Assembly: GCA_022360445.1 (NCBI GenBank)
Contig: JAKSCV010000068.1
Location: 186,001 to 250,000, forward strand
Source: Gammaproteobacteria bacterium
GTDB taxonomy: Bacteria; Pseudomonadota; Gammaproteobacteria; UBA5861
Direction: 5' to 3'
Length of the DNA: 64,000 bases
Positions within the stretch are counted from its first letter, which is position 1. The number at the start of each line of letters is the position of its first letter. Shown in pieces: positions 46,078 through 57,455 of this stretch. A program made the translations under genes and the position numbers. A model generated the notes under the pieces. That model searched no databases and was not told the origin of the DNA. It saw only the letters and a list, made by a program, of their open reading frames with translations.

Positions 46078-46135
46078 TCAAGGTAAATGCCTTTTGAGGC
46101 AGCTAAGGAACTCTCTACCAAGGACATCGTGCAGA

Positions 46136-48298
46136 ATGAATAAAAATAGTGTTGTTTCACTCAGTTCAGTCAAGCCCAATACGTCTTCTGTTTCAATGCA
46201 GGAAGCATCCATTGATATTTGGGATAAAAAATACCGATTGAAAACGAAGGATGGGGAACCCGTCGATGAAACGATTGATGGCACCTACCAGCGGGTTGCA
46301 CGCGCCCTGGCTGATGTTGAAGGTGATGATCACAAAAAATCAGAGTGGTATGAAAAATTTCTATGGGCGCTACGCCATGGCGCGATACCTGCTGGACGCA
46401 TTACATCCAATGCGGGTGCTTTGAAACATAAACCCGCCACATCGACCATTAATTGCACGGTTTCGGCTACGATCGAAGACTCCATGAATGACATCCTTGG
46501 GAAAGTTCATGAAGCGGGTTTAACGCTGAAAGCCGGCTGTGGTATCGGGTATGACTTTTCAACACTGCGGCCACGTGGTGCCTATGTTTCGGGGGCGGGA
46601 GCCTACACCTCCGGGCCTCTGTCATTTATGGATATTTACGACAAGATGTGTTTTACCGTTTCCTCCGCAGGTGGGCGCAGAGGGGCCCAGATGGCCACCT
46701 TTGATGTTCGTCACCCGGATGTGATGGAGTTTATTCGCGCCAAGCGTGAAGATGGGCGCTTAAGACAGTTCAACCTGTCGCTTTTGATCACGGAAGATTT
46801 TATCGAAGCGGTTAAAAACGATGCGGACTGGCAGCTTATTTTCCCCGTTCGCAAAATAGAGCTCGATGAGCTGAGGGCCTCAGGAAAAGCACTTCCCGAA
46901 CTTGTCTGGAAAGAATGGCCTACTAAAACGGGGCTTGTCGTCAACGATGAAGGGTTAGTGGCCTGCACGATCTACAAAACAATTCGGGCGCGGCGCTTGT
47001 GGGACATGATTATGGCATCCACATACGATTATGCAGAACCGGGGTTTATCCTCATCGATAAAGTCAATGAGATGAATAATAATTGGTTTTGTGAAGACAT
47101 TCGTGCCACGAACCCGTGTGGAGAGCAGCCCTTGCCACCCTACGGGGCCTGCCTGCTGGGTTCGATTAATTTAACCCGATTTGTATTGGACCCCTTTACG
47201 GAAAAAGCTCGCTTTGATTGGGATAAATTCAAAGAAACGGTTTCCATCTTTACCCGGATGCTGGACAACGTTGTTGAGATCAATGGTCTGCCGCTTGAAG
47301 GTCAACGCGAAGAAATCATGCGAAAACGTCGTCATGGAATGGGCTATCTGGGTCTGGGCTCAACATTGACGATGTTAAAAATAAAATATGGTGAGCCTGA
47401 GTCTCTCGAATTTACGGAAAAGGTTACCCGGGAGATGGCATTATCTGGGTGGCGAACCGGGCTTGAGCTCGCCCGAGAAAAAGGAGCGGCACCCATCATG
47501 GAGGAAGAATTTTCTGTTACTCGCGAAATGCTGCGTCACCGTCCTGAAATGGCAGTTGATGGATACAAAGTAGGTGATCACATTCCCGGCAAAGTACTCC
47601 ACAGCCGTTACAGTCGCTATATGCAGCAAATTGCATCTGTGGATCCTGAGCTGATTGAAGAGTTGGCTGAAGTTGGCGCACGGTTTACTCATCACAGCTC
47701 GATTGCGCCAACAGGTACGATTTCCCTGTCTCTGGCGAATAATGCCAGCAATGGCATTGAGCCTTCTTTTGCTCACCATTATTCGCGGAATATCATTCGG
47801 GAGGGGAAGAAAACGAAAGAAAAAGTCGATGTTTATTCCTTCGAATTACTGGCTTACCGAGAGCGGATTAATGATCAGGCAGCGCCTTTTTCTAACAATC
47901 CGGACAACCAATTGCCAGATTACTTTGTAGCAGCGGATGACATTACACCAAAAGCACACGTCGACATACAGGCGGCAGCACAAAAGTGGATTGATTCTTC
48001 CATTTCCAAAACCGCAAATGTTCCGACTGATTTCCCGTTTGATGAATTTAAAGACATCTATCTTTACGCCTATGAAAATGGCCTGAAAGGGTGTACAACA
48101 TTTCGGTTTAATCCCGAAGTCTTCCAAGGTGTTTTAGTGAAAGAAACGGATCTGGAAAATACAGTCTATGAATTCCAGCTGGATGATGGTTCTGTTGTCA
48201 AACTGAAAGGTAATGAAGAAGTGGAATATGACGGTGAAATGCACACCGCAGCGAACCTTTACGATGCCTTGAAAGAAGGCTACTACGGAAAACTTTAA
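46136..48298 (+). CDS. nrdJa: B12-dependent ribonucleotide reductase, catalytic subunit NrdJa
   Basis: 720 residues from the ATG at 46136 (the frame is open to a TTG at 46094, but the shorter form fits the family's length of about 715). Class II alpha/beta barrel: substrate cysteine in STINCTVSATIEDS, the radical-site NPCGEQ (Asn-Cys-Glu) and PPYGACLLGSINL, and the C-terminal GCTTFRFNPEV. It makes deoxyribonucleotides using adenosylcobalamin, with or without oxygen. The C-terminal redox tail is on the separate gene nrdJb, as in Pseudomonas aeruginosa. Confidence 0.93.
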   Translation: MNKNSVVSLSSVKPNTSSVSMQEASIDIWDKKYRLKTKDGEPVDETIDGTYQRVARALADVEGDDHKKSEWYEKFLWALRHGAIPAGRITSNAGALKHKPATSTINCTVSATIEDSMNDILGKVHEAGLTLKAGCGIGYDFSTLRPRGAYVSGAGAYTSGPLSFMDIYDKMCFTVSSAGGRRGAQMATFDVRHPDVMEFIRAKREDGRLRQFNLSLLITEDFIEAVKNDADWQLIFPVRKIELDELRASGKALPELVWKEWPTKTGLVVNDEGLVACTIYKTIRARRLWDMIMASTYDYAEPGFILIDKVNEMNNNWFCEDIRATNPCGEQPLPPYGACLLGSINLTRFVLDPFTEKARFDWDKFKETVSIFTRMLDNVVEINGLPLEGQREEIMRKRRHGMGYLGLGSTLTMLKIKYGEPESLEFTEKVTREMALSGWRTGLELAREKGAAPIMEEEFSVTREMLRHRPEMAVDGYKVGDHIPGKVLHSRYSRYMQQIASVDPELIEELAEVGARFTHHSSIAPTGTISLSLANNASNGIEPSFAHHYSRNIIREGKKTKEKVDVYSFELLAYRERINDQAAPFSNNPDNQLPDYFVAADDITPKAHVDIQAAAQKWIDSSISKTANVPTDFPFDEFKDIYLYAYENGLKGCTTFRFNPEVFQGVLVKETDLENTVYEFQLDDGSVVKLKGNEEVEYDGEMHTAANLYDALKEGYYGKL

Positions 48299-48324
48299 TC
48301 GATCAATCTGCAGGTACGTAGAGT

Positions 48325-49044
48325 ATGCCAACTAAAATTGAAAAGAAAATTGTGGGTTACCAGGTGGAATCCAGTACTAACACTCAACAAGCAGAAGCTC
48401 CAGCTGCACAGATCGAGCGTACAGACCGGGCGGATATAATTCATATGCATGAGTCCGTCAAGCGCCCCGAGATGTTGATTGGCTCGACCTATAAAGTTAA
48501 AACACCATCGGATATTTCAGAGCACTCGCTCTACATCACGATTAACGACATCATTTTGAATGAAGGCACAGAACACGAGCTACGTCGCCCGTTTGAGGTC
48601 TTCATTAACTCCAAAAACATGGAGCACTTTCAATGGATTGTGGCGTTAACCCGCATCATTTCTGCGGTTTTTCGGAAAGGTGGGGACGTTACGTTTCTGG
48701 TGGAAGAGCTGCGCTCAGTGTTTGATCCTCGCGGTGGGTACTGGAAGCGAGGGGGAAAATACATGCCCTCGCTGGTTGCTGAGATTGGTGATGTTATTGA
48801 GCGGCACTTAATCTCTATTGGCCTTATGAAGGCACCTGAGCTGGATGAACACCAGAAACAACTGATGGACGCCAAGCGGGAAGAGTTCTCTTTATCACCA
48901 AGCCCGGCCTCTGATGATGTGGGTGACGACGAGAATAACTTTCCCAGCAATGCGGAGCTGTGCAAAAAATGCCATACCAAGGCCGTTGTCGTATTGGATA
49001 ACTGTGCGACGTGCTTGAACTGCGGCAATTCCAAATGTGGTTGA
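48325..49044 (+). CDS. nrdJb: ribonucleotide reductase NrdJb (C-terminal domain subunit)
   Basis: 239 residues with the TSCPD-type domain (KRPEMLIGSTYKVKTPSDISEHSLYITIND, about 45-75) and a Cys-rich C-terminal end, CKKCHTKAVVVLDNCATCLN then CGNSKCG, which would be the redox-active/zinc-ribbon tail that re-reduces the NrdJa active site. Begins 26 bp after nrdJa. Together they form the split class II enzyme. The next small gene repeats the CxxC theme. Confidence 0.9.
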   Translation: MPTKIEKKIVGYQVESSTNTQQAEAPAAQIERTDRADIIHMHESVKRPEMLIGSTYKVKTPSDISEHSLYITINDIILNEGTEHELRRPFEVFINSKNMEHFQWIVALTRIISAVFRKGGDVTFLVEELRSVFDPRGGYWKRGGKYMPSLVAEIGDVIERHLISIGLMKAPELDEHQKQLMDAKREEFSLSPSPASDDVGDDENNFPSNAELCKKCHTKAVVVLDNCATCLNCGNSKCG

Positions 49045-51815: not shown

Positions 51816-51933
51816 TTCCACCTCCTTTATTATATGTTTGAGGACTTTTCTTATTAGGTGCTGTTTGAAATAAGACTGTCTTATTTTGCTGAGACTCTTG
51901 TTATCCAGTCAATTAATTTTTTTGGGAAAATTG

Positions 51934-52536
51934 ATGAAAGTATACGGTGATCATAACTCTGGAAACTGCTACAAAATCAAATTAGTGTTGTCCATTCTTA
52001 ATCTGAATTGTGATTGGGAGGATGTTGATATTTTAGCAAACGAAACCCAAACTTCTATGTTTCTATCCAAAAACCCTAATGGAAAGATTCCCGTACTGGA
52101 ATTAGATGATGGGCGCTGCCTTTCAGAGTCCAATGCGATTGTAAATTACCTGGCAACTGGGAGCCCCTTATTACCGGCCGATCCGTTTCAACAGGCGAAG
52201 GTATTGCAATGGCAATTTTTTGAACAATATAGCCATGAACCTTATATCGCTGTTGCTCGTTTTATTGCTAAGTACTTGAACATGCCCAGTGATCGAAAAA
52301 AAGAATATGAAGCAAAACAAGCTGGGGGGCATAAAGCGCTTGGAGTGATGGAACAGCGCCTGTTTGAAAGTGACTACCTGGTTGGTAAACAGCTGACAAC
52401 GGCTGATATTTCGTTATTTGCTTACACCCACGTTGCGCATGAAGGAGGGTTCGATTTATCGCGTTACCCCGCCGTTGTGGCATGGATAACTCGAGTGATG
52501 GCCCATCCCGGCTATGTTGGAATGGGCCGCCACTAA
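51934..52536 (+). CDS. glutathione S-transferase-like protein
   Basis: 200 residues from ATG 51934 (a longer frame begins at 51886 without support). N-terminal thioredoxin-fold domain MKVYGDHNSGNCYKIKLVLS with NGKIPVLELDDGRCLSESNAIVNYL, and a helical C-terminal domain with LTTADISLFAY. It stands alone on the plus strand between two minus-strand CoA-transferase genes, so it may be an insertion into the cluster or a detoxifier of its products. Confidence 0.83.
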   Translation: MKVYGDHNSGNCYKIKLVLSILNLNCDWEDVDILANETQTSMFLSKNPNGKIPVLELDDGRCLSESNAIVNYLATGSPLLPADPFQQAKVLQWQFFEQYSHEPYIAVARFIAKYLNMPSDRKKEYEAKQAGGHKALGVMEQRLFESDYLVGKQLTTADISLFAYTHVAHEGGFDLSRYPAVVAWITRVMAHPGYVGMGRH

Positions 52537-53908: not shown

Positions 53909-54286
53909 CTATGAGGCAGCTTTTATTTCTGCAGTGCCTTTGATAACAATTTGCCCGTCTTGGTTTTTCACCCAAACATCATAGACTTGGCCGGAACCTT
54001 CTTTTAGTTCCCCCCCGCCGGTAACGGTGTCGTCAATGCGAACGGGTGAAACAAAGCGGATATCCAGATGGACACGGTTCACAACGCCCGCGCCGAGAGT
54101 TTTTTTCAGTGACTGCCAAATCAGTGCTAAAGACATGGTGCCATGTGCAATGATGCCGCCCATTGGGCTTTTGGCGGCAAATTCTTTGTCCACATGAATG
54201 GGGTTGTAATCCTGGGTGACGTCCGCGTAGTTGAGAATTGATTCAAAATCGACATGATTGCTTGCGGGTTCTAATACTTTTTGCAT
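53909..54286 (-). CDS. MaoC-like (R)-specific enoyl-CoA hydratase, catalytic type
   Basis: 125 residues from ATG 54286 with GAGGAGAA six bases upstream; an in-frame GTG at 54301 is rejected. One hotdog domain with the hydratase motif ADVTQDYNPIHVDKEFA, which has the Asp and His of the catalytic dyad. It would hydrate a trans-2-enoyl-CoA. The partner gene upstream encodes a MaoC fold without this dyad, so the two probably form a heteromer as in ChsH1-ChsH2. Confidence 0.85.
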   Translation of the reverse strand: MQKVLEPASNHVDFESILNYADVTQDYNPIHVDKEFAAKSPMGGIIAHGTMSLALIWQSLKKTLGAGVVNRVHLDIRFVSPVRIDDTVTGGGELKEGSGQVYDVWVKNQDGQIVIKGTAEIKAAS

Positions 54287-54297
54287 GATTGTTCTCC

Positions 54298-54699
54298 TCA
54301 CTCGGCGACCAGTGATGTCATCACGCCGGTGAACAGCAGCTCACCGGTATCTTTGCTGTGTGTGCGTGTTTCTGAGTAAGCCCATTTTCGGCCTTTACGA
54401 ATTTTTTTGTCGATGCAACGCACTTCGGTGACTAAGGTTTCACCAATACGTGGCATGCGGTGTATGTCGAAAGACTGTCCGCCATGAACGCCTCCAGGAG
54501 GGCGTGGGGATTGATGCGTCAGAATGGCATCCACAGCAATCATCGCCGTCATGCCAGGTGGCATTACGCCGGGTTCGTTGTCATCCGGATAAACGGTACG
54601 CCATTTGTTTACGGTTTCCTCGTCAACCGTGAATTCTGATTCACCGTACAGTTTTCCCGGCTCGTAATAATCGTATGTAAAAAGCTGCTCTTCTGTCAT
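54298..54699 (-). CDS. MaoC-like hotdog protein, non-catalytic type (ChsH2 N-domain-like)
   Basis: 133 residues, FAS1-like/MaoC N-terminal dehydratase family: PGVMPPGMTAMIAVDAILTHQSPRPPGGVHGGQSFDIHRMPRIGETL, without an N-P-x-H catalytic pair. In ChsH2 such a domain pairs with a catalytic MaoC protein and is fused to a DUF35 domain; here the DUF35 protein is the next gene upstream. Ends at the Shine-Dalgarno of the catalytic partner. Confidence 0.78.
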   Translation of the reverse strand: MTEEQLFTYDYYEPGKLYGESEFTVDEETVNKWRTVYPDDNEPGVMPPGMTAMIAVDAILTHQSPRPPGGVHGGQSFDIHRMPRIGETLVTEVRCIDKKIRKGRKWAYSETRTHSKDTGELLFTGVMTSLVAE

Positions 54700-54708
54700 A
54701 AGTGCCTC

Positions 54709-55134
54709 TTATTCTGCAGGTTCAACTTGTGGGATTTTGTAGTCGGAACCGTCCCGGGTTTCAAAAATTACCCACACGGGCATGCCGATATAGACGCGCT
54801 CTGGTGGGCAATTAAGAATATTGGCGGTGATCCGGAATCCTTCTGCCATGTCAACCATAGCAATGGGGTAGGGGGTGTCATCCTTGAAAGCCGCATTAGG
54901 GGCTCTATGGATAATCGAATACGTAAAAACAGATCCCTGCCCACTGGATTCCCGCCAGTCGAGGTTTTTCTGGTGACATTTCCGACAAACAGAACTGGGC
55001 ACAAACTGGGGTGTTTGGCAATCAAGACAATACTGATAAAGAAGTTTATTGCGGTTAGCGGCCTCCCAGAAAGCCTGAGTATGCGGCTTGGGTTCAATAC
55101 CCGGTTTATTGGGCTTTTGTACGGGTGTATTCAT
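54709..55134 (-). CDS. DUF35 OB-fold zinc-ribbon protein, thiolase partner
   Basis: 141 residues. Zinc-ribbon CLDCQTPQFVPSSVCRKCHQ (about 36-55) and an OB-fold with GSVFTYSIIHRAPNAAF and VDMAEGFRITANI. DUF35 proteins bind thiolase-like enzymes; with Ltp2 they form a steroid side-chain aldolase. The start overlaps the thiolase stop by 4 bp, so the two are translated together, supporting a complex. Confidence 0.87.
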   Translation of the reverse strand: MNTPVQKPNKPGIEPKPHTQAFWEAANRNKLLYQYCLDCQTPQFVPSSVCRKCHQKNLDWRESSGQGSVFTYSIIHRAPNAAFKDDTPYPIAMVDMAEGFRITANILNCPPERVYIGMPVWVIFETRDGSDYKIPQVEPAE

Positions 55135-56291
55135 GATGCGTCTCCCAAAACAAGTGAACAGTGCGCAGAAAAGATACCACCCTGGTTATGGGCAAAGGCC
55201 AGTTCAGCATCTTGTACTTGCCGCTGATCGGCTTCGCCGCGTAGCTGCCGAACGGCTTCGACGACATGCCAAAGGCCACCGGCTGCGCCTGATGAGCCAA
55301 ATGAGAGCAGGCCACCATGCGTATTTGTGGGCAATGCCCCCCCAATCTCCAGTTCACCAGTTAACGCTGCTTCACCAGAAGCGCCGCGCTCATAGAATCC
55401 CATGGATTCAAGTTGAATTAACAGTGTGCTGGTAAAGCAATCGTAAATCTCCGCAACATCGATGTCTTGCGGTGCCACCCCAGCTTTCTTGAATGCGGCT
55501 TCGGCCGAAAATTTGCAGCCAAAATGATCCAGTGTCTCGGGTGCCATCATGATGTGTTCATGCGTATGTCCCTGGCCTGAGCCCAATATCGTGATGGGTT
55601 TTTTGCGCAGATCCGGGGCGGTATCTGCCGCGCTGACGACGACAGCACCACCACCATCAGAAATCAGGCAGCAATCGAGCATATGAAGCGGTTCGGCGAT
55701 CATTTTTGAATTAAGCACATCATCAATTTCAATCGGTTTTTGCATATGTGCGTCAGGGTGAAGCGCCGCGTGCTTGCGACAGGTGACGGCAGCGGCTGCA
55801 AAGTGCTCGTTAGTCAAACCGTAGTCATGCATGTATCGTTGAGCCACCATGGCATAGCTGGCTGGTACGGTGATGCCGAACGGATTTTCAAATTCCGGGT
55901 GGCCGACCATGCTGGAAATCACTGAAACGACGTTGCTGCCATGGCCTGTCACGCGATTATCGCCTGTTACACATAAAACATGTTGACAATAGCCCGCTTC
56001 GACGAGTGCAGCGGCTTCCTGGATAAGCATGGTCCCTGTGGCGCCGCCCATGGAAATGGACGAGAGGTGAGCGGGCCGAATGCCGACATCCTCACAAAAG
56101 ACGGATCCCAGCATGATATGGGGCAGTGTGGTGGCATAGGCGGTCAGCACGCCGTCAATATCGCTGAGTTTAAGACCGGCGTCCTCCACGGCACCGATAC
56201 CTGATTCGGCGTGGATGGACATGCAGGTACTGCCCTCCAATACGCCAACTTGGGTGTTGTAGACACCACTGACGACTGCTTTTTTTATCAT
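55131..56291 (-). CDS. thiolase-like protein (SCP-x/Ltp2 type) without the N-terminal nucleophile Cys
   Basis: 386 residues, SCP-x thiolase fold. Where thiolases have N-C-[AS]-[ST]-G the sequence reads S-M-G-G-A-T-G (about 80-86), so the acyl-carrying cysteine is absent. AEIYDCFTSTLLIQLE (about 280-295) and HNQGGIFSAHCS near the end are typical of the lipid-transfer thiolase family. Loss of this Cys is also seen in Ltp2, which cleaves C-C bonds as a retro-aldolase with a DUF35 partner. TAGGAGG precedes the ATG. Alternatively an inactive thiolase. Confidence 0.85.
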   Translation of the reverse strand: MIKKAVVSGVYNTQVGVLEGSTCMSIHAESGIGAVEDAGLKLSDIDGVLTAYATTLPHIMLGSVFCEDVGIRPAHLSSISMGGATGTMLIQEAAALVEAGYCQHVLCVTGDNRVTGHGSNVVSVISSMVGHPEFENPFGITVPASYAMVAQRYMHDYGLTNEHFAAAAVTCRKHAALHPDAHMQKPIEIDDVLNSKMIAEPLHMLDCCLISDGGGAVVVSAADTAPDLRKKPITILGSGQGHTHEHIMMAPETLDHFGCKFSAEAAFKKAGVAPQDIDVAEIYDCFTSTLLIQLESMGFYERGASGEAALTGELEIGGALPTNTHGGLLSFGSSGAAGGLWHVVEAVRQLRGEADQRQVQDAELAFAHNQGGIFSAHCSLVLGDAS

Positions 56292-56333: not shown

Positions 56334-57455
56334 TTAGTAATAAGAAATATTGTTCTTCAAGTGATTGAGTTGCTCAATTGTGCCTTCAACCAGCTCTTGC
56401 ATGATCTTCGCAGCAGGTTTCCGCTTTTTCAACATGCCGGATATTTGCCCTGCGGGGTTAAGAATCAAATCATGTCGCCCGGCTTTTTGCGCCGCAGCAG
56501 TAAAGTCTTCCATCAAGATACGCTGGTAGGGTGTGGGCAATGGGTCCAGATTAGAGTCTGCCCAGGCTTTGGAGACCTCGTTGTGAAAGACTCGTACGGT
56601 TTTTCCTGTCCAGATTCGGCTCACTTCAAACTCCTGTGAGTTACCAGCCAGAATTTGATTCTTATTAGTATCGTAAATTTCGCATTCTTCTGCGACCAAA
56701 AATGCCGTGCCTATCCACACGGCCTGGGCTCCCAGTGCTAAGCTGGCCGCAATGCCCCGGCCATCGGCAATACCACCGGCGGCAATTACTGGTGTTGGGC
56801 TGATTTCGTCGACTACCTGGGGAATCAATGGAAATGTTGAAACACGCCCGGTATGGCCGCCAGCCTCACTGCCTTGCGCAATCACAGCGTCTACACCCGA
56901 TTTGCACTGTCGAATCGCATTGCGCACGGACCCTGATAGTCCCAGGACTTTCATGCCCTGGGTATGTCCGGGTTCAACAATGACTTTAGGATCACCCAGG
57001 CCCGCAGCAAAAATCGGCACTTTCTCATCAAGAATAACGTCAATCACCGTTTTGGCGTATTCATTATCAACGACGATGTCGTCCTCCGGGTAAGCCTCCG
57101 GAAGGTCAAATTTTGTGATCAATTCTTTTACGAACGCGACATGCTCCGGGTAGTCTTTTATCAACTGCTCTCTGACACCTTGCCGGGTAGGGGCGGATGC
57201 GGATATTTTCGCAGGTAAAAGCAAGTCAACGCCGAAAGGCTTATCCGTCAAAGAGCGCACTTCATGGATGCGACGACGAGTTTCTTCTGGGCTCAGCCCG
57301 GAGCAGCCCATAATGCCCGCTCCACCAGCCTCAGAGACGGCTGCGACCAGTTTGGGTGGCGTGGCCCGGCCGGCCACCCCCATGCCAGCAAGTAAAATAG
57401 GGTATTCTATTGAGAGTTCGTCGCAAAATGCGTTGTGGAAAGTTGGTTTATTCAT
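56334..57455 (-). CDS. NAD(P)H-dependent flavin oxidoreductase (nitronate monooxygenase family)
   Basis: 373 residues, FMN TIM barrel: YPILLAGMGVAGRATPPKLVAAVSEAGGAGIMG at the start, QGSEAGGHTGRVSTFPLIPQ, and PVIAAGGIADGRGIAASLALGAQAVWIGTAFL. Members oxidise nitronates or dehydrogenate ring substrates; IpdC of the steroid pathway belongs here. As first gene of the minus-strand CoA cluster it could act on the same compound. Divergent from nadC. Confidence 0.85.
   Translation of the reverse strand: MNKPTFHNAFCDELSIEYPILLAGMGVAGRATPPKLVAAVSEAGGAGIMGCSGLSPEETRRRIHEVRSLTDKPFGVDLLLPAKISASAPTRQGVREQLIKDYPEHVAFVKELITKFDLPEAYPEDDIVVDNEYAKTVIDVILDEKVPIFAAGLGDPKVIVEPGHTQGMKVLGLSGSVRNAIRQCKSGVDAVIAQGSEAGGHTGRVSTFPLIPQVVDEISPTPVIAAGGIADGRGIAASLALGAQAVWIGTAFLVAEECEIYDTNKNQILAGNSQEFEVSRIWTGKTVRVFHNEVSKAWADSNLDPLPTPYQRILMEDFTAAAQKAGRHDLILNPAGQISGMLKKRKPAAKIMQELVEGTIEQLNHLKNNISYY

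What the first reader, a model, noticed from the sequence alone, without database searches (positions are those of the whole stretch)
53909..56291. ChsH1/ChsH2/DUF35/Ltp2-like hydratase-aldolase module with each domain on its own gene
A catalytic MaoC protein, a MaoC protein without the dyad, a DUF35 protein and a thiolase-like protein lacking the N-terminal Cys are consecutive and overlapping. In actinobacterial steroid side-chain degradation the same parts form the ChsH1-ChsH2 hydratase and the Ltp2-DUF35 retro-aldolase, with ChsH2 fused to DUF35. Here the domains are split. The cluster could shorten a branched or steroid-like acyl-CoA by aldol cleavage.
Basis: partly seen in the sequence, partly recalled or inferred. 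Interest (0 to 1): 0.65.

Follow-up and report, generated by a model that had tools for sequence, protein, structure and literature searches.

The report
Split hydratase–aldolase operon, probably not steroid-related
Four neighbouring genes of an uncultured gammaproteobacterium encode a two-part water-adding enzyme and a thiolase-derived enzyme that has lost the thiolase's key cysteine, so together they probably split a hard-to-degrade fatty-acid-like CoA compound by hydration and aldol cleavage, a trick best known from steroid breakdown but found here in a genome without the usual steroid-ring gene.

Summary
At 53909-56291 (minus strand) lie a thiolase-fold protein, a DUF35 protein, a MaoC-fold protein without catalytic residues and a catalytic MaoC, each on its own gene, probably in one operon with an upstream NMO/FabK-like flavoenzyme. 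The thiolase nucleophile is truly lost: Gly replaces Cys, and HDxF reads YDCF. Cys-less proteins separate from true thiolases with 100/100 support. The Ltp2/steroid interpretation is only partly supported. The protein is not Ltp2: that clade is rejected (p-AU 5e-4), and YDHF plus the second Tyr are missing. Its candidate catalytic pair, Tyr283/Cys285, matches the Comamonas bile-acid aldolase Sal, but Sal membership is not established. The marker KshA is absent. The closest modules, same four genes in the same order, sit on Roseovarius and Azospirillum plasmids among acyl-CoA and transport genes. Splitting itself is not new: Rhodococcus plasmids carry split Ltp2- and Sal-type sets. New are a MaoC partner whose whole active-site segment is deleted, the non-steroid setting, and signs that this hydratase pair keeps different C-C lyases as neighbours. 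Best reading: heteromeric hydratase plus retro-aldolase for a non-steroid, bulky or beta-branched enoyl-CoA. A new variant of a known kind; the reaction is untested.

The parts
55131..56291 (-). Thiolase-fold, Cys-less protein (386 aa); proposed retro-aldolase. Gly83 at the nucleophile position, Tyr283-Asp-Cys285-Phe, Ser333, Gly372
   Evidence: Pfam Thiolase_C_1 5.9e-53; 40% to 4U4E, 36% to TcLtp2, 35% to CtSal; active-site map and tree
54709..55134 (-). Stand-alone DUF35 (rubredoxin-like zinc ribbon with CxxC...CxxC, plus OB fold), proposed partner of the thiolase-fold protein; overlaps its stop by 4 bp
   Evidence: Pfam OB_ChsH2_C 2.3e-21 and zf-ChsH2 5.4e-11; PDB TcChsH2-DUF35 6.6e-20, CtShy-DUF35 6.4e-16
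54298..54699 (-). MaoC/hot-dog protein (133 aa) whose catalytic Asp/His segment is deleted; proposed substrate-binding partner of the hydratase (ChsH2-MaoC or HadA role). Family motif P-x-G-x-x-H-x-x-Q
   Evidence: FAS1_DH_region in 3 of 7 relatives, best 3.5e-15; 5cpg 2.6e-7; hhalign to the catalytic MaoC 94.7%; fold search hits HadAB and ChsH1-ChsH2 weakly, from a low-confidence model
53909..54286 (-). Catalytic MaoC hydratase; ORF listed to 54301 (GTG), likelier start ATG at 54286 with AGGAG upstream. In the 130-aa numbering: Asp31-x-Asn33-Pro34-x-His36 dyad, His53-Gly54
   Evidence: Pfam MaoC_dehydratas 2.5e-22; D31, N33, P34, H36 invariant in 7 relatives; start site read from sequence
56334..57455 (-). 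NMO/FabK-like FMN enzyme, first gene of the run, 42 bp upstream of the thiolase-fold gene; role unknown
   Evidence: Pfam NMO 4.9e-64; PDB FabK 1.7e-49; same order in L033
52550..53749 (-). Type III (CaiB) CoA-transferase, TTG start after GAGGAG, 159 bp downstream of the catalytic MaoC; possible CoA activation step
   Evidence: Pfam CoA_transf_3 2.2e-110; order conserved in L033
50601..51821 (-). Second CaiB CoA-transferase, beyond a divergent GST gene (51886-52536, +); possible pathway member
   Evidence: Pfam CoA_transf_3 2.6e-113; conserved in L033

Best explanation
The four genes encode a two-step acyl-CoA chain-shortening machine. Step 1 (inferred): the catalytic MaoC (Asp31/His36) and the segment-deleted MaoC form a heteromeric enoyl-CoA hydratase. 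The first supplies the dyad. The second, which has no catalytic segment at all, supplies an opened substrate pocket, as ChsH2 does for ChsH1. Step 2 (inferred): the DUF35-bound thiolase-fold protein cleaves the resulting 3-hydroxyacyl-CoA by retro-aldol reaction to a short acyl-CoA and an aldehyde or ketone. Tyr283 takes the proton from the beta-hydroxyl, held by the Gly83 backbone, and Cys285 returns a proton to the enolate, as Tyr302/Cys304 are proposed to do in the characterised aldolase Sal. Cys-dependent thiolysis is not possible because the nucleophilic Cys is gone. The substrate is probably a bulky or beta-branched, non-steroid enoyl-CoA, perhaps activated by the neighbouring CaiB CoA-transferases. 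Shown here: gene content, residue losses, phylogeny, recurrence of the module. Inferred: both reactions, the partnerships, the substrate class.
For: Gly/Tyr replace thiolase Cys/His in all 43 compared Cys-less proteins, which include the characterised aldolases CtSal and TcLtp2 and the ibuprofen-pathway IpfD (PMC12329534, PMC9195938). The Cys-less group is separated 100/100 from true thiolases. CtSal's catalytic pair and Gly89 are conserved as Tyr283, Cys285, Gly83. At the two acid positions every Cys-less protein keeps at least one of Cys, His or Tyr; in the window protein Cys285 is the only one. The catalytic MaoC keeps its dyad in 7 of 7 relatives and the partner lacks the segment in 7 of 7. 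The partner gene is found on 11 plasmid records and 9 of them have the thiolase-fold gene beside it. Same gene order in Roseovarius and Azospirillum. No KshA, with working controls.
Against: No activity, complex or substrate was measured. The nearest split-module relatives have Ser where the window protein has Cys285 (YDSF, with His at position 333), and C304S killed CtSal (PMC12329534), so the acid cannot be the same residue across the clade. CtSal's helper residues Gln161, Gln347 and Gln352 are Pro, Leu and Ser here. No acyl-CoA dehydrogenase lies beside the operon. The fold model of the dyad-less MaoC is poor (pLDDT 50).
Confidence: 0.6

Rival explanations
1. One reading: a split ChsH1/ChsH2/Ltp2 set that removes a steroid side chain (C3 or C5).
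For: Same four roles; DUF35 closest to ChsH2-DUF35 in the PDB; Sal-like Tyr/Cys pair; window clade plus Sal clade is not rejected (p-AU 0.135).
Against: Not Ltp2 (p-AU 0.0005). KshA absent from the genome (98% complete) and from the closest relatives. The catalytic MaoC falls outside ChsH1 (86/88). The nearest modules sit among BCAA-type ABC, TRAP, acyl-CoA ligase and ADP-forming CoA ligase genes. KshA-independent anaerobic steroid degradation was not tested.
Confidence: 0.1
2. The thiolase-fold/DUF35 pair makes rather than breaks C-C bonds (acyl transfer or aldol addition), as PhlC-PhlB and the archaeal thiolase/HMG-CoA synthase complexes do.
For: DUF35 partners occur in both biosynthetic and degradative thiolase-fold complexes (PMC12329534); aldol reactions are reversible.
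Against: The relatives sit in catabolic-looking clusters with dehydrogenases, hydratases, CoA ligases and uptake systems. PhlC-type acyl transfer is generally thought to need a nucleophilic Cys (established knowledge, not tested here), and the window protein has none.
Confidence: 0.1
3. The hydratase pair is active, but the thiolase-fold protein does other enolate chemistry (decarboxylation, hydrolysis) or is a catalytically weak scaffold.
For: TbSLP, with the same YDCF motif, shows weak malonyl-CoA decarboxylation (PMC12329534). Residues 285 and 333 vary within the clade. Elsewhere the hydratase pair sits beside a CitE/HpcH lyase instead.
Against: Tyr, Gly and at least one candidate acid are kept in all 43 Cys-less proteins, which is not what decay looks like; CtSal has no malonyl-CoA decarboxylase activity (PMC12329534).
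Confidence: 0.15

Closest known systems
Sal-Shy, C5 bile-acid side-chain aldolase/hydratase of Comamonas testosteroni (PDB 9MYR; PMC12329534, PMC11321319)
   Same: Cys-less thiolase fold with DUF35; Gly89/Tyr302/Cys304 conserved as Gly83/Tyr283/Cys285; hydratase and aldolase genes together
   Different: 35% identity; Gln161, Gln347, Gln352 not conserved; DUF35 has a C4, not C3H1, zinc site and is a separate protein; hydratase is a MaoC pair, not one homodimeric MaoC; no KshA in the genome
ChsH1-ChsH2-Ltp2 (igr-type) C3 steroid side-chain complex (PDB 6OK1, 4W78; TA441 ORF40-44, PMC12502768)
   Same: Catalytic plus dyad-less MaoC, DUF35, Cys-less thiolase fold
   Different: Ltp2 clade rejected; YDCF/Ser333 instead of YDHF/Tyr344; DUF35 not fused; MaoC partner shorter, with the active-site segment deleted; no ChsE pair beside it
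Split Ltp2-type and Sal-type sets on Rhodococcus plasmids (L124, L125)
   Same: MaoC, MaoC, DUF35 and aldolase all on separate genes, with two CaiB genes upstream
   Different: Aldolases belong to the Ltp2 and Sal clades; MaoC partners only 15-24% identical to the window's; L125's plasmid carries KshA
Roseovarius indicus pRIdsm_01 and Azospirillum p4 modules (L113, L114), uncharacterised
   Same: Same order THL-DUF35-MaoC-MaoC; THL 63/55%, dyad-less MaoC 52/35%, catalytic MaoC 55/47%; same thiolase clade (99/93)
   Different: YDSF with His at position 333; crotonase and acyl-CoA dehydrogenase genes in the cluster; no NMO beside it
IpfD-IpfE, ibuprofen side-chain removal (pIBU218, PMC9195938)
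   Same: Cys-less thiolase fold with separate DUF35 acting on a non-steroid acyl-CoA and releasing propionyl-CoA
   Different: 31% identity, Ala/Tyr at the acid positions, no hydratase pair (a ring dioxygenase is thought to supply the hydroxyl)
HadAB (3R)-hydroxyacyl-ACP dehydratase of Mycobacterium tuberculosis
   Same: Heteromeric hot-dog enzyme; top fold match of the dyad-less MaoC (low-confidence model)
   Different: ACP-dependent fatty-acid elongation, no aldolase; resemblance of the dyad-less MaoC is at fold level only

Membership tests
True (SCP2-type) thiolase | Nucleophilic Cys in the N-terminal half | tested here: not met
   Gly83 in place of Cys
True (SCP2-type) thiolase | HDxF motif | tested here: not met
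   YDCF; all 8 Cys-containing rows have H, all 43 Cys-less rows have Y
Ltp2 | Falls in the Ltp2 clade | tested here: not met
   p-AU 0.00049 against window clade plus Ltp2
Ltp2 | YDHF motif plus second catalytic Tyr (TcLtp2 Tyr344) | tested here: not met
   YDCF and Ser333
Sal | Catalytic Tyr302/Cys304 pair | tested here: met
   Tyr283/Cys285
Sal | Gln347/Gln352 and oxyanion Gln161 | tested here: not met
   Leu328, Ser333, Pro143
Sal | Falls in the Sal clade | tested here: inconclusive
   Free tree places it elsewhere; joining is not rejected, p-AU 0.135
Sal | Shy-type C3H1 zinc finger in DUF35 | tested here: not met
   Sequence shows CxxC...CxxC, C4 type
ChsH1-ChsH2 hydratase | Catalytic MaoC with Asp/His plus partner MaoC without them | tested here: met
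   D31/H36 invariant in one family, segment deleted in the other
ChsH1-ChsH2 hydratase | ChsH2 MaoC fused to C-terminal DUF35 | tested here: not met
   Separate ORFs; the fusion is not universal even in Ltp2-type sets
ChsH1-ChsH2 hydratase | Catalytic subunit groups with ChsH1 | tested here: inconclusive
   Outside ChsH1 with 86/88 support only
Steroid degrader | 3-ketosteroid 9-alpha-hydroxylase KshA in the genome | tested here: not met
   Absent; controls positive on Vibrio and Rhodococcus steroid-gene plasmids
Steroid degrader | ChsE-type acyl-CoA dehydrogenase pair | tested here: inconclusive
   None beside the operon; an ACAD pair at C88, 34-37% to Vibrio steroid-cluster ACADs, sits with another Cys-less thiolase
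Retro-aldolase (function) | Cleaves a 3-hydroxyacyl-CoA | not testable with these tools
   Needs purified proteins

The most novel reading that the evidence does not exclude
A general, horizontally spread hydrate-and-split module outside steroid metabolism. A two-protein hydratase, one subunit of which has lost its entire active-site segment, pairs interchangeably with at least two separate lineages of Cys-less thiolase aldolases and, elsewhere, with CitE/HpcH-type CoA lyases. It would shorten beta-branched or bulky acyl-CoAs whose 3-hydroxy group is tertiary and cannot be oxidised.
Probability: 0.35. Interest if true: 0.6.

Novelty: new variant of a known kind. Interest (0 to 1): 0.42.

Why it matters
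The few characterised members of this Cys-less thiolase group act on steroid side chains or ibuprofen, and the rest tend to be annotated as thiolases or lipid-transfer proteins. This module and its plasmid relatives point to hydratase-aldolase cleavage in other acyl-CoA pathways. The four-residue signature (Gly and Tyr in place of thiolase Cys and His, plus a Cys, His or Tyr acid) gives a simple way to tell probable aldolases from thiolases in genomes. The window genome alone has seven Cys-less proteins of this group with different acid residues, so one organism could be used to test the rule.

Tried and rejected
Nucleophile Cys lost only by misalignment: rejected by several alignments. True thiolase: rejected (100/100 split). 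Ltp2 identity: rejected. Split module as one lineage: rejected, because the thiolases of the split modules (window, Roseovarius, Azospirillum, La6, C30) are not one clade (p-AU 5e-75), so split modules arose or were assembled more than once. Dyad-less MaoC as a spurious ORF: rejected, conserved at 35-52% in same-order modules. Led little further: a KstD protein query (no hit in the window genome, but in the control records it found only its own near-copy, so uninformative); a FadD3 query (40 stretches of acyl-CoA synthetase-like genes, not specific); the dyad-less MaoC across the phylum (only distant MaoC hits of 30-49 bits outside the window genome); its single-sequence fold (pLDDT 50); NMO and CaiB neighbours on plasmids (generic); literature searches for a non-steroid four-part module. 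In one script the CtSal numbering was offset; it was corrected.
Full report
WHAT IS THERE. Reading the minus strand from 57455 down: an NMO/FabK-like flavoprotein (57455-56334), a thiolase-fold protein (56291-55131), a DUF35 protein (55134-54709), a small MaoC-fold protein (54699-54298), a catalytic MaoC (ORF 54301-53909, likelier start 54286), a CaiB CoA-transferase (53749-52550), a divergent GST gene, and a second CaiB (51821-50601). The same order is kept in the sister genome UBA5861 (L033, thiolase-fold protein 97% identical). Close spacing and Shine-Dalgarno-like sequences at the starts suggest one operon from the NMO gene to the catalytic MaoC (inference).

THE THIOLASE-FOLD PROTEIN. In an alignment of 51 proteins the nucleophilic Cys of thiolases is Gly83 and the thiolase HDxF motif is Tyr283-Asp-Cys285-Phe. 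All eight Cys-containing rows, including SCP2 thiolase, benzoylsuccinyl-CoA thiolase and two archaeal thiolases, have Cys/His at these positions; all 43 Cys-less rows have Gly/Tyr. A tree splits the two sets with 100/100 support. At the two positions that hold the second catalytic residue in characterised members, the Cys-less proteins show Cys/His (18), Ser/His (8), His/Tyr (5, the Ltp2 group), Cys/Gln (5, four of them the Sal group, plus L035), Ala/His (3), Ala/Tyr (2, one of them IpfD) and Cys/Ser (only the window protein and its sister). Each of the 43 keeps at least one of Cys, His or Tyr. In the window protein that residue can only be Cys285, as in CtSal, where Tyr302 and Cys304 are essential and C304S is inactive (PMC12329534). 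CtSal's helpers Gln161, Gln347 and Gln352 are not kept. The fold model (pTM 0.81) matches 4U4E best, a Cys-less structural-genomics entry named only putative thiolase, then Ltp2 and Sal.

PLACE IN THE FAMILY. The window protein forms a clade with the split-module proteins of Roseovarius and Azospirillum (99/93), and more widely with those of Paracoccaceae La6, Comamonas endophytica and Cnuibacter (100/99). Joining with Ltp2 is rejected (p-AU 0.0005); joining with Sal is not (p-AU 0.135). So the claim that it is an Ltp2 fails; the claim that it works like a Sal-type aldolase stands as inference.

THE HYDRATASE PAIR. The catalytic MaoC keeps Asp31, Asn33, Pro34 and His36, invariant in seven relatives. 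The partner family (seven members, 25-52% to the window's) lacks the segment bearing these residues: about 13 residues are missing against the (R)-hydratase 5CPG. Its membership of the MaoC/hot-dog superfamily rests on Pfam FAS1_DH_region in three of seven members (best 3.5e-15), on 5CPG (2.6e-7) and on profile comparison with the catalytic MaoC (94.7%); the structure model is weak and supports only the fold. ChsH1-ChsH2 works this way: one subunit brings the dyad, the other the pocket (PMC11321319). The partner family has its own invariant motif around His72 and Gln75, whose role is unknown.

RECURRENCE AND CONTEXT. On plasmids the partner gene is found in 11 of 72,556 records, and in nine of these (Roseovarius, seven Azospirillum, Paracoccaceae La6) the thiolase-fold gene lies next to it. 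Neighbours are BCAA-type ABC and TRAP transporters, AMP-binding and ADP-forming CoA ligases, crotonases and acyl-CoA dehydrogenases. In Sulfitobacter sp. THAF37 the hydratase pair directly precedes a CoA ester lyase gene, and in Antarctobacter it stands without a thiolase in a cluster that holds such a lyase further on. The window genome has a second split set on contig C30, in the order MaoC-MaoC-thiolase-DUF35, whose thiolase is from another lineage. A Roseovarius cluster dehydrogenase is 57% identical to one beside a further Cys-less thiolase-DUF35 pair in the window genome (L022), a lead for the missing dehydrogenation step.

STEROIDS? The genome is 98% complete by the tool's figure and has no KshA; the same search finds KshA on Vibrio alfacsensis and Rhodococcus qingshengii plasmids and not in the closest module-bearing plasmids or the sister genome. 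This argues against aerobic steroid ring degradation, not against every steroid use. Rhodococcus plasmids carry all four parts on separate genes with Ltp2-type (L124) and Sal-type (L125) aldolases, so the split layout alone is not a novelty. In C. testosteroni TA441, ChsH2 split by hand keeps both activities (PMC12502768).

HOW IT PROBABLY WORKS. An acid is activated to its CoA ester (CaiB, inferred), an alpha,beta-double bond is present or introduced elsewhere (unknown), the MaoC pair adds water, and the thiolase-fold/DUF35 pair cuts the C(alpha)-C(beta) bond by retro-aldol chemistry using Tyr283 and Cys285, releasing an acyl-CoA and a carbonyl compound. The point of such a route, in steroid side chains as probably here, is that a tertiary or hindered 3-hydroxyl cannot be oxidised for normal thiolysis. 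The role of the NMO/FabK-like protein is open.

CONCLUSION. Most likely a non-steroid hydratase/retro-aldolase operon, a new variant of the Sal/Ltp2 kind. Gene content, residues, phylogeny and recurrence are shown; the reaction, complex formation and substrate are inferred.

Noticed in passing
L020:9617-12104 (G000 contig C30): Second split set in the same genome: MaoC without dyad, catalytic MaoC, Cys-less thiolase (YDSF), and a DUF35 that has lost its zinc cysteines; divergent acyl-CoA dehydrogenase beside it.
   Followed up: partly
L116:8989-10569; L115:8974-17814: The MaoC pair occurs without a thiolase: directly before a CoA ester lyase gene (Sulfitobacter), and in a cluster that also contains one (Antarctobacter), suggesting partner exchange.
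   Followed up: partly
L121, L122, L160 (Vibrio alfacsensis plasmids, 174-176 kb): A Vibrio plasmid carries what looks like a bile-acid/steroid catabolic set: Sal with Shy, Ltp2 with ChsH1/ChsH2, KshA, FadD3-like ligase.
   Followed up: no
L120:5939-9557 (pIBU218): Besides IpfD-IpfE, the ibuprofen plasmid carries a second aldolase of Ltp2 type (YDHF) with its own separate DUF35, a crotonase and a CaiB.
   Followed up: no
L017, L019, L021, L022, L026: The window genome has 11 Thiolase_C_1 proteins, seven of them Cys-less, and some 30 or more acyl-CoA synthetase-like genes: a rich acyl-CoA degrader.
   Followed up: partly
54298-54699 (residues 67-75): Invariant P-x-G-x-x-H-x-x-Q motif in the dyad-less MaoC family, with no counterpart seen in the catalytic partner; role unknown.
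   Followed up: no
46094-49044: By reading only: a class II ribonucleotide reductase-like ORF of 734 aa followed by a separate 239-aa ORF with a C-terminal zinc-ribbon-like Cys cluster, resembling a split NrdJa/NrdJb.
   Followed up: no
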